From Bacilli bacterium (GTDB lineage Bacteria; Bacillota_I; Bacilli_A; RF39; UBA660): a stretch of DNA of 64,000 nucleotides. Positions 38,276 through 39,450 of this stretch are shown here, in pieces (the first letter of the stretch is position 1; each line of letters starts with the position of its first letter). Location of the stretch: NCBI GenBank assembly GCA_017398945.1, contig JAFQES010000018.1, positions 1 to 64,000 on the forward strand. Direction: 5' to 3'. The notes under the pieces are model-generated. The model did no database searches. It worked only from the letters and a program-made list of their open reading frames with translations, and had not been told where the DNA came from. Made by a program: the position numbers and the translations under genes.

Positions 38276-38304
38276 TTGTTTTATAAATATACTTTTTATA
38301 TAAT
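38276..38304 (+). promoter_or_regulatory. Promoter of peptide gene 1
   Basis: TTGTTT (38276-38281), 17 bases, perfect TATAAT (38299-38304) followed by GC. Predicted start near 38311 at GGATATA, the left arm of the 5'-3' pairing. Confidence 0.75.
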
Positions 38305-38372
38305 GCAATTGGATATATTTAATTAGCGTTAGGTGCACTCCTTTACATCAAACTGCAAAGGAGGTGGATTTT

Positions 38373-38450
38373 ATGACAAATAGAGAAAAATCTCAATTTA
38401 TTATAATCATCCTCTTATTTATTCTAGTATTTGTAATACTATTTAAATAA
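38373..38450 (+). CDS. Hydrophobic 25-residue peptide 1, candidate type I toxin
   Basis: The product is MTNREKSQF followed by a 15-residue aliphatic/Phe segment and a final Lys. It is short enough to insert in the membrane as one helix with a charged N terminus, like type I toxins of Firmicutes. AAAGGAGGTGG, the best ribosome site in the window, lies eight bases before the ATG. The leader segment CTCCTTT (38338-38344) can pair perfectly with AAAGGAG (38357-38363), hiding that site. Two paralogues follow. No named family is recognised. Confidence 0.75.
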   Translation: MTNREKSQFIIIILLFILVFVILFK

Positions 38451-38566
38451 AAAAAGCACACTAACGCTCAAGCTTGAGTCTTAGTGTGCAACCAAAAACT
38501 TTGGAGTGTACCTAACCTTGCGAAAATTAGATATATCCTTTTTTATTATATTCAAGTTGCCTTGAC
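38446..38566 (-). ncRNA. Predicted antisense RNA of peptide gene 1
   Basis: A minus-strand promoter, TTGTCA, 17 bases, TATATT (38573-38601), points at the 3' end of the peptide unit. A minus-strand terminator, GCACACTAA...TTAGTGTGC (38456-38489) followed by seven T, lies directly after the peptide stop. The RNA would be about 120 bases and fully complementary to the 3' untranslated part of the peptide mRNA, including its pairing arm at 38503-38538. Confidence 0.65.
38503..38546 (+). terminator. 3' end of peptide mRNA 1 and long-range pairing arm
   Basis: 38503-38538 (GGAGTGTACCTAACC ... TAGATATATCC) is the near-perfect reverse complement of the mRNA start at 38311-38341 (GGATATATTTAATT ... 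TTAGGTGCACTCC), and is followed by TTTTTT. The local hairpin is weak (CTAA/TTAG), so termination may rely on the long-range stem. Confidence 0.5.
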
Positions 38567-38710
38567 ATATCCAATATATCATAAATACAATGACTTGACA
38601 ATTAGTAAAATTTAATAATTTGTTTATTATAATTATCAAAATTTATCATAATATTCATTAAAAAAATAATACTTTAATACAACATATAACAATAATTTAA
38701 TTTTAGTAGT

Positions 38711-38739
38711 TTGCTATATCCCCTATCGTCTTATATAAT
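38711..38739 (+). promoter_or_regulatory. Promoter of peptide gene 2
   Basis: TTGCTA (38711-38716), 17 bases, TATAAT (38734-38739) followed by GC; same layout as copies 1 and 3. Confidence 0.75.
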
Positions 38740-38815
38740 GCTTTTTGGATACATTTGAAATATCAGATGTTTTCCCTTTCGATAATCTTTAGATTAAAGA
38801 AAGGTGGTGATAATT

Positions 38816-38893
38816 ATGACTAAAAGAGAATTCTCTCAATTTATTATAATTATACTATTATTTTATATAGTAATCACCTTACTATATAAATAA
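38816..38893 (+). CDS. Hydrophobic 25-residue peptide 2, candidate type I toxin
   Basis: The product is MTKREFSQF followed by a hydrophobic segment (IIIILLFYIVITLLY) and final Lys, the same length and plan as peptide 1. GAAAGGTGGTGA precedes the ATG. The leader can form a hairpin in which CCTTTC (38775-38780) pairs with GAAAGG (38799-38804), with an inner AATCT/AGATT stem, so the ribosome site is covered. Confidence 0.75.
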   Translation: MTKREFSQFIIIILLFYIVITLLYK

Positions 38894-39010
38894 TAAAAAC
38901 ATCTGATTTCAACATTAGTTGATTTCAGATGCTCATCCAAATAAGGGATTACATCTGATTCACACAATCAAATGTATCCTTTTTTATTTTATGCAAGATT
39001 ACTTGCTTAC
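38889..39010 (-). ncRNA. Predicted antisense RNA of peptide gene 2
   Basis: Minus-strand promoter TTGTAA, 17 bases, TAACAT (39017-39045). Minus-strand terminator stem CATCTGA-AAT-CAAC / GTTG-AAA-TCAGATG (38900-38931) then TTTTTATTATT, ending at the peptide stop codon. Length about 120 bases, as in the other copies. The promoter is the weakest of the three. Confidence 0.58.
38951..38986 (+). terminator. Terminator of peptide mRNA 2
   Basis: ACATCTGATT, CACAC loop, AATCAAATGT, four bases and then six T. The region 38943-38979 is also complementary to the mRNA start (38747-38778). Confidence 0.7.
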
Positions 39011-39155
39011 ATACCAATGTTATCACACATTAATTTAATTTACAATATTTAAAGTTTCTATAAATGAATATTAACATTAACAAAAGATTACCTAAAGGTT
39101 TTACTAAAAGCAATAATTAGCATCTAATATAGATCGAAAATCAAATTTTAGTCAT

Positions 39156-39184
39156 TTGCTATACTTTTCCCCATCTTATATAAT
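39156..39184 (+). promoter_or_regulatory. Promoter of peptide gene 3
   Basis: TTGCTA (39156-39161), 17 bases, TATAAT (39179-39184). Confidence 0.75.
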
Positions 39185-39260
39185 TGTTCTCAGATACATT
39201 TAAAAAGTCAGATGTTTTCCCTTTCAAATATCTTACGATAAATGAGAGGTGGTGATAGTT

Positions 39261-39338
39261 ATGACTAAGAGAGAAACTTCTTTTTTTCTTATAATTATAC
39301 TATTATTTTTTATAGTAATCCCCTTACTATATAAATAA
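39261..39338 (+). CDS. Hydrophobic 25-residue peptide 3, candidate type I toxin
   Basis: The product is MTKRETSFF followed by LIIILLFFIVIPLLY and a final Lys. It has the same length as peptides 1 and 2 and keeps T2, R4, E5, S7 and the last Lys, so the reading frame is under selection. GAGAGGTGGTGA precedes the ATG; CCTTTC upstream can pair with GAGAGG with one mismatch, a weaker version of the sequestering hairpin. Confidence 0.75.
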   Translation: MTKRETSFFLIIILLFFIVIPLLYK

Positions 39339-39450
39339 TAAAAACATCTGATTTCAACAATAGTTGATTTCAGATGCCCCAAATTCAGGGATTACATCTG
39401 ATTCACACAATCAAATGTATCCTTTTTTATTATATTCAAGTTGCCTTGAC
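39331..39450 (-). ncRNA. Predicted antisense RNA of peptide gene 3
   Basis: Minus-strand promoter TTGTCA, 17 bases, TATATT (39457-39485), the same boxes as copy 1. Minus-strand terminator at 39345-39376 plus T-rich tract, ending at the peptide stop. About 120 bases. The promoter lies 12 bases beyond the end of the same-strand GNAT gene. Confidence 0.65.
39394..39428 (+). terminator. Terminator of peptide mRNA 3
   Basis: ACATCTGATT, CACAC, AATCAAATGT then ATCC and six T, identical to copy 2. 39387-39422 is complementary to the mRNA start at 39193-39223. Confidence 0.7.

What the first reader, a model, noticed from the sequence alone, without database searches (positions are those of the whole stretch)
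38338..38363. Ribosome-site-sequestering hairpins in the peptide leaders
Seen: CTCCTTT (38338-38344) pairs perfectly with AAAGGAG (38357-38363); CCTTTC (38775-38780) with GAAAGG (38799-38804) plus an inner AATCT/AGATT stem; in copy 3 the pairing has one mismatch. Each uses different bases but hides the same ribosome site. This is a second layer of translational control beyond antisense RNA and suggests that copies may differ in leakiness, copy 3 being the least covered.
Basis: seen in the sequence. Interest (0 to 1): 0.7.

Follow-up and report, generated by a model that had tools for sequence, protein, structure and literature searches.

The report
Toxin-like mRNA with switchable ribosome-site hairpin
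Three tandem copies of a tiny membrane-peptide gene in a gut bacterium hide their ribosome-binding site in an RNA hairpin, and conservation in over 100 relatives suggests that the same hairpin strand can instead be taken by the far end of the message, so that an antisense RNA could shut the message by covering that end.

Summary
The hairpins are real. Each Shine-Dalgarno (SD) site in the three copies folds into a local hairpin of -9.1, -10.7 and -10.6 kcal/mol, z -3.3 to -2.8. In 129 related loci the SD core is fully paired in 116, with compensatory changes. The copy-3 'mismatch' is a G.U wobble, so copy 3 is not the least covered. The larger finding lies outside the given coordinates. The mRNA's 5' arm is complementary to its own 3' tail, and the inner end of that pairing uses the same strand that hides the SD: the tail mimics the SD. 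The pairing is kept by compensatory change across sequence classes and in a second peptide family. Modelling predicts that the intact tail lowers the cost of opening the SD (about 4 versus 8 kcal/mol), and that losing or covering the tail, as a convergent antisense RNA would do, closes it. SD-hiding hairpins in type I toxin mRNAs are well known (par of pAD1, bsrG, aapA). Here the 3' end is an SD mimic, not an anti-SD, and the peptide and RNA match nothing in Pfam or Rfam. I rate it a new variant of a known kind. Expression, toxicity and the switch are untested.

The parts
38299..38304 (+). copy 1 toxin-mRNA -10 box TATAAT (inferred start near 38311)
   Evidence: sequence
38311..38341 (+). copy 1 5' arm GGATATATTTAATTAGCGTTAGGTGCACTCC; pairs with tail 38503-38538; inner end CTCC shared with the SD hairpin
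   Evidence: class B consensus fold
38338..38363 (+). copy 1 SD-sequestering hairpin CTCCTTT/AAAGGAG
   Evidence: -9.1 kcal/mol, z -3.26
38373..38450 (+). copy 1 25-aa membrane peptide MTNREKSQFIIIILLFILVFVILFK
38456..38489 (-). terminator hairpin of the inferred copy 1 antisense RNA (RNA II), followed by a T run on the - strand
   Evidence: inverted repeat I5
38503..38538 (+). copy 1 3' tail GGAGTGTACCTAAC...ATATATCC, then T6; complementary to the 5' arm; GGAGTG pairs with the anti-SD CACTCC
38545..38573 (-). inferred RNA II promoter TGGATA-17-TATAAT
   Evidence: consensus match only
38711..38739 (+). copy 2 toxin promoter TTGCTA-17-TATAAT
   Evidence: consensus match only
38747..38778 (+). 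copy 2 5' arm GGATACATTTGA..ATCAGATG..CCCTT, complementary to tail 38943-38979
   Evidence: I6 and I14; covariation
38775..38804 (+). copy 2 SD-sequestering hairpin CCTTTC..TAATC/GATTA..GAAAGG
   Evidence: -10.7 kcal/mol, z -2.83
38816..38893 (+). copy 2 peptide MTKREFSQFIIIILLFYIVITLLYK
38900..38931 (-). copy 2 RNA II terminator hairpin with variable loop
38943..38979 (+). copy 2 3' tail AAGGGATTACATCTGAT...TCAAATGTATCC: mRNA terminator hairpin, RNA II binding site and SD mimic (AAGGG)
39156..39184 (+). copy 3 toxin promoter TTGCTA-17-TATAAT
   Evidence: consensus match only
39192..39223 (+). copy 3 5' arm AGATACATTT..GTCAGATG..CCCTT, partly decayed
39220..39249 (+). copy 3 SD-sequestering hairpin CCTTTCA/TGAGAGG with one G.U wobble
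   Evidence: -10.6 kcal/mol, z -2.78
39261..39338 (+). copy 3 peptide MTKRETSFFLIIILLFFIVIPLLYK
39345..39376 (-). copy 3 RNA II terminator hairpin
   Evidence: sequence; family consensus
39387..39422 (+). copy 3 3' tail AGGGATTACATCTGAT...TCAAATGTATCC
   Evidence: I10 and I15

Best explanation
Each unit is most likely a type I toxin-antitoxin module. One RNA encodes a 25-aa membrane peptide; a convergent antisense RNA (RNA II) lies inside the 3' part of the mRNA. The leader hairpin hides the SD in new and antisense-bound mRNA. The strand that hides the SD has a second partner, the SD-mimicking 3' tail, reached through a long 5'-3' helix. In free full-length mRNA the tail competes the anti-SD strand away and makes the SD easier to open. 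When RNA II covers the tail, or the tail is missing, the strand returns to the SD and translation stops; the duplex would then be degraded. Shown: the SD hairpin, the 5'-3' complementarity, their compensatory evolution, and the overlap of the two pairings. Inferred: transcripts, toxicity, RNA II action, and the direction of the switch.
For: SD hairpin conserved. In 112 class A loci the 5'-3' pairing has 65 double-change cells against 27.8 in shuffles (0 of 200 reach it), 97.9% paired against 27-43% when slid. Duplex energy, cognate versus crossed classes: A -33.8, B -32.8, C -31.9, but A leader with B tail -14.0. Opening cost of the SD core in full-length versus 3'-blocked mRNA: class A 4.05/7.8, B 5.8/8.3, C 1.95/4.65 kcal/mol; breaking only the inner tail strand gives 8.7, 8.9 and 4.3. 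Own tail 4.33 versus shuffled tail 7.8, lower in 42 of 45; class A mRNAs with class B tails 6.9 versus 4.1. The second peptide family shows the same: 5.8, inner strand broken 8.1, blocked 7.3; 20 of 23 lower. The window's copy 2: 3.1 full, 8.2 blocked. Precedent for an antitoxin that binds the 3' end and extends SD sequestration: SR4/bsrG (PMC6562991).
Against: No expression data; both RNAs are inferred from promoter-like and terminator-like sequence. The consensus minimum-energy fold of full-length class A and B keeps the SD hairpin together with the outer 5'-3' helix; the switch rests on ensemble energies of one model. Within class A the inner helix CCCTT/AAGGG hardly varies and shows no covariation of its own; its support comes from differences between classes. 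Copy 3 has almost no predicted switch (4.3 to 5.2).
Confidence: 0.5

Rival explanations
1. Static delay, as in parpAD1: the hairpin lowers translation until RNA II has bound. The 5'-3' helix only protects the ends from RNases and does not move the anti-SD strand.
For: The SD hairpin is very strongly conserved; the consensus full-length fold keeps it with the outer 5'-3' helix. parpAD1 has the same 5'-SL and 5'-UH pair of elements (PMC7472228). RNase J is encoded in the window.
Against: The inner tail strand is kept complementary to the anti-SD strand in every class although the sequences differ, which end protection alone does not require; breaking it doubles the modelled SD opening cost in class A.
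Confidence: 0.3
2. Inert reservoir, as in hok and aapA: the 5'-3' helix plus SD hairpin make a full-length mRNA refractory to ribosomes and antisense RNA; 3' trimming activates it.
For: Long 5'-3' complementarity and local SD hairpin as in aapA3 (PMC6733600). The 5' arm copies both ends of RNA II and so would occupy the RNA II sites.
Against: In the model truncation makes the SD harder to open (10.3 versus 7.3 kcal/mol for the 8-mer), opposite to this scheme. The tail is SD-like, not anti-SD-like.
Confidence: 0.13
3. The inverted ends are terminal repeats of a small mobile element and have no regulatory role.
For: Multi-copy units of similar length with inverted ends; tandem and scattered copies.
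Against: The conserved unit runs past the repeats into both promoters; compensatory change inside the leader; no target duplications noticed by eye; no match in phages, plasmids or viral contigs.
Confidence: 0.04

Closest known systems
par of pAD1 (Fst/RNA II; Fst/Ldr family)
   Same: Small membrane peptide, convergent antisense RNA, intramolecular stem-loop hiding the SD (5'-SL), helix sequestering the 5' end, variable interaction sites between paralogs (PMC7472228).
   Different: Peptide matches no Fst model. Repeats are inverted, not direct, so RNA II has the same sequence as the leader ends and is not complementary to the leader. RNA II is nested in the mRNA, with separate terminators instead of one bidirectional one.
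bsrG/SR4 (also txpA/RatA) of Bacillus subtilis
   Same: Antitoxin overlaps the toxin mRNA 3' end; SR4 binding extends SD sequestration from 4 to 8 bp (PMC6562991).
   Different: No peptide similarity found in family scans. Here the predicted change works through a 5'-3' helix in which the tail mimics the SD; I recall no such element in bsrG.
aapA/IsoA of Helicobacter (and hok/Sok)
   Same: 5'-3' long-distance pairing and an upstream anti-SD hairpin in a small-peptide toxin mRNA (PMC6733600).
   Different: There the 3' end carries an anti-SD and truncation activates. Here the 3' end carries an SD mimic and truncation is predicted to close the SD. The antisense RNA lies at the 3' end, not the 5' end.

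Membership tests
Type I toxin-antitoxin modules (general) | Small hydrophobic membrane peptide | tested here: met
   25 aa, charged N-terminus then a hydrophobic stretch, conserved in 25 aligned members
Type I toxin-antitoxin modules (general) | Antisense RNA that overlaps the toxin mRNA | tested here: inconclusive
   Conserved antisense promoter-like and terminator sequences in relatives; no transcript data
Type I toxin-antitoxin modules (general) | Peptide toxic when the antisense RNA is lost | not testable with these tools
   needs expression in a laboratory strain
Fst/Ldr (par) family | Toxin of the Fst/Ldr superfamily | tested here: not met
   No Fst or Ldr match in Pfam or NCBIfam
Fst/Ldr (par) family | Direct repeats DRa/DRb and a shared bidirectional terminator | tested here: not met
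   Repeats are inverted (I6, I14); two separate terminator hairpins
Fst/Ldr (par) family | Intramolecular hairpin hiding the SD | tested here: met
bsrG/txpA group | Antitoxin complementary to the toxin mRNA 3' end | tested here: inconclusive
   Layout met in sequence; antisense RNA itself unproven
aapA/hok group | 3' end sequesters the SD in the full-length mRNA | tested here: not met
   The tail pairs with the anti-SD strand, not with the SD

The most novel reading that the evidence does not exclude
A large, undescribed set of type I modules in uncultured gut Bacilli (two peptide families, several mutually incompatible RNA specificity classes) uses an 'anti-anti-SD' tail: the message's own 3' end mimics the SD and holds it open, and the antisense RNA, whose ends are copied in the mRNA leader, works by taking that tail away.
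Probability: 0.35. Interest if true: 0.72.

Novelty: new variant of a known kind. Interest (0 to 1): 0.5.

Why it matters
It would be an RNA switch with logic opposite to hok/aapA: the full-length message is the open form and the 3'-binding antisense RNA closes a distant ribosome site by displacement. The many natural classes are ready-made compensatory mutants, so the mechanism could be tested by swapping leaders and tails in a laboratory strain. The modules are also common, in about a third of the sampled genomes of one bacterial family, and match no Pfam, NCBIfam or Rfam family.

Tried and rejected
Anti-SD inside the coding region: SD-ORF duplexes are no better than with synonymous codons permuted (median rank 0.43). 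Longest-run statistic for the hairpin: not discriminating in U/G-rich leaders (7.25 versus 6.11, sd 1.33), replaced by folding z-scores. Second energy model: values came out identical, so the parameter file was probably not applied and I draw nothing from it. Loop diversification between paralogs: 0 of 66 within-genome pairs share both loops, but sharing is also rare between genomes, so only suggestive. Rfam at E up to 1: nothing. Phages, plasmids, viral contigs: nothing. Terminator scan: none found, since its loop and tail rules do not fit these hairpins.

Full report
What was claimed. The pairings of copies 1 and 2 are at the stated positions. Folded alone, the three hairpins have -9.1, -10.7 and -10.6 kcal/mol and z-scores of -3.26, -2.83 and -2.78. 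In copy 3 the supposed mismatch is a U.G wobble, and the stem gains an A-U pair and an inner stem, so it equals copy 2.

What the unit is. Window 38299-39434 holds three tandem units of about 230 nt. Each has a promoter-like sequence (for copy 1 only the -10 box), a leader, a 25-codon ORF for a charged-then-hydrophobic peptide (M T N/K R E ...), a hairpin that reads as a terminator on the - strand, and a tail ending in TATCC-T6. A promoter-like sequence on the - strand sits just past the tail. The - strand RNA predicted from this (RNA II) lies wholly inside the 3' part of the mRNA. The peptide has no credible Pfam, NCBIfam or PADLOC match and the region no Rfam match.

Distribution. The own genome has five copies, one with an in-frame TAA. 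In 386 genomes of the same family 125 have a match at E <= 0.01. A class-wide sample of 395 genomes had 16 with matches, all of the same family. Named relatives are uncultured gut Bacilli from goat, sheep, rabbit ('Lapin') and RUG-labelled samples. No relative was found in IMG/VR, and no similar DNA in phage or plasmid records.

The SD hairpin is conserved. From 145 ORF hits I kept 129 loci with both ends readable. Median local z is -3.5, and the five SD-core bases are all paired in 116 of 129. In 112 class A loci the hairpin has 25 double-change cells against 5.1 in shuffles, none of 200 reaching it, and 93.9% of cells paired against 49-64% when slid. Caveat: shuffles ignore relatedness.

The 5'-3' pairing. 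The leader's 5' arm (GGATACATTTGA..ATCAGATGC..CCCTT in class A) is complementary to the mRNA tail (AAGGG..GCATCTGAT..TCAAATGTATCC). Class B uses GTTAGGTGCACTCC/GGAGTGTACCTAAC and class C GATTAGGTGCTTTCC/GGAAAGCACTTGAT. Duplex energies are -33.8, -32.8 and -31.9 within A, B and C, but -14.0 for an A leader with a B tail. Class A alone has 65 double-change cells against 27.8 in shuffles; one informative change, read from the listed loci, is C-to-U after ATCAGATG with G-to-A before CATCTGAT, a pair used by neither local hairpin.

The overlap. In each class the inner end of the 5'-3' helix runs into the strand that hides the SD: CTCC in class B, CCCTT in A, CTTTCC in C, TTTCTTGG in L131 (tail CCAAGAAAGG, SD strand CAAGAAAGG), GCC in the second peptide family. 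The tail therefore mimics the SD side. In modelled full-length class A mRNAs the anti-SD strand is shared almost evenly (median 0.46 with SD, 0.38 with tail), and opening six SD bases costs 4.05 kcal/mol. It costs 8.7 if only the inner tail strand is changed and 7.8 if the 3' region is made unavailable as by RNA II. Shuffled tails give 7.8 against 4.33 for own tails, lower in 42 of 45; class B tails on class A mRNAs give 6.9 against 4.1. In the window, full/blocked costs are 2.9/5.9 (copy 1), 3.1/8.2 (copy 2) and 4.3/5.2 (copy 3): copies 1 and 2 look switchable, copy 3 weakly so, perhaps because its 5' arm has decayed.

A second peptide family. L012 carries a related RNA layout with another peptide, and a search with that peptide found 52 of 193 genomes. 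Twenty-three of these loci gave the same result: 5.8 full, 8.1 with the inner strand broken, 7.3 blocked; 20 of 23 lower in full length. The control RNA plan is shared by two peptide families.

Comparison. An SD-hiding intramolecular hairpin acting beside the antisense RNA is established for par of pAD1 (PMC7472228), and transient anti-SD hairpins for aapA3 (PMC6733600). SR4 binds the 3' end of bsrG mRNA and extends SD sequestration (PMC6562991). What differs is the tail: in aapA it is an anti-SD, here it mimics the SD. Failing the Fst and aapA tests on toxin family, repeat orientation and tail type lowers membership, not the analogy.

Limits. No transcript, toxicity or probing data exist here. 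All switch energies come from one thermodynamic model without tertiary structure, kinetics or ribosomes. The consensus minimum-energy fold keeps the SD hairpin closed together with the outer 5'-3' helix, so the static-hairpin rival remains serious.

Noticed in passing
L160-L189; own genome G000 C28:24934-25002 and C9:28173-28241: A second small-peptide family (MNKKDFLILSLVIIIFLLLFLLFIVLI-like) with the same 5'-arm, SD-hairpin and tail layout but different sequences, in 52 of 193 genomes of the family.
   Followed up: partly
window 38552-38563, 38994-39007, 39436-39447 and relatives: An inverted repeat (CAAG/CTTG, or GAAG/CTTC, GAG/CTC by compensatory change) lies just upstream of the RNA II -10 box; a repeat of 4 or more bp was found in 119 of 129 loci (no control run). 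Possible operator or backup terminator.
   Followed up: partly
window 38747-38773 versus 38891-38979 (- strand): The toxin leader copies both ends of RNA II: GGATACATTTGA (RNA II 5' end) and ATCAGATGTTTT (RNA II 3' end), as if the mRNA carried a miniature of its own antitoxin.
   Followed up: partly
L013: A chimeric unit: leader like that of the second family joined to a class A tail, so 5'-3' pairing is lost (-12.6 kcal/mol).
   Followed up: no
tail loop 38959-38967 and RNA II terminator loop 38914-38917, and relatives: Both hairpin loops shared by mRNA and RNA II are hypervariable while stems are fixed; 0 of 66 within-genome pairs share both loops. Suggests loop-loop specificity.
   Followed up: partly
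G000 C15:105782-105856 (L002): A further copy in the same genome has TAA at codon 5, probably a decayed toxin gene with intact control RNA.
   Followed up: no
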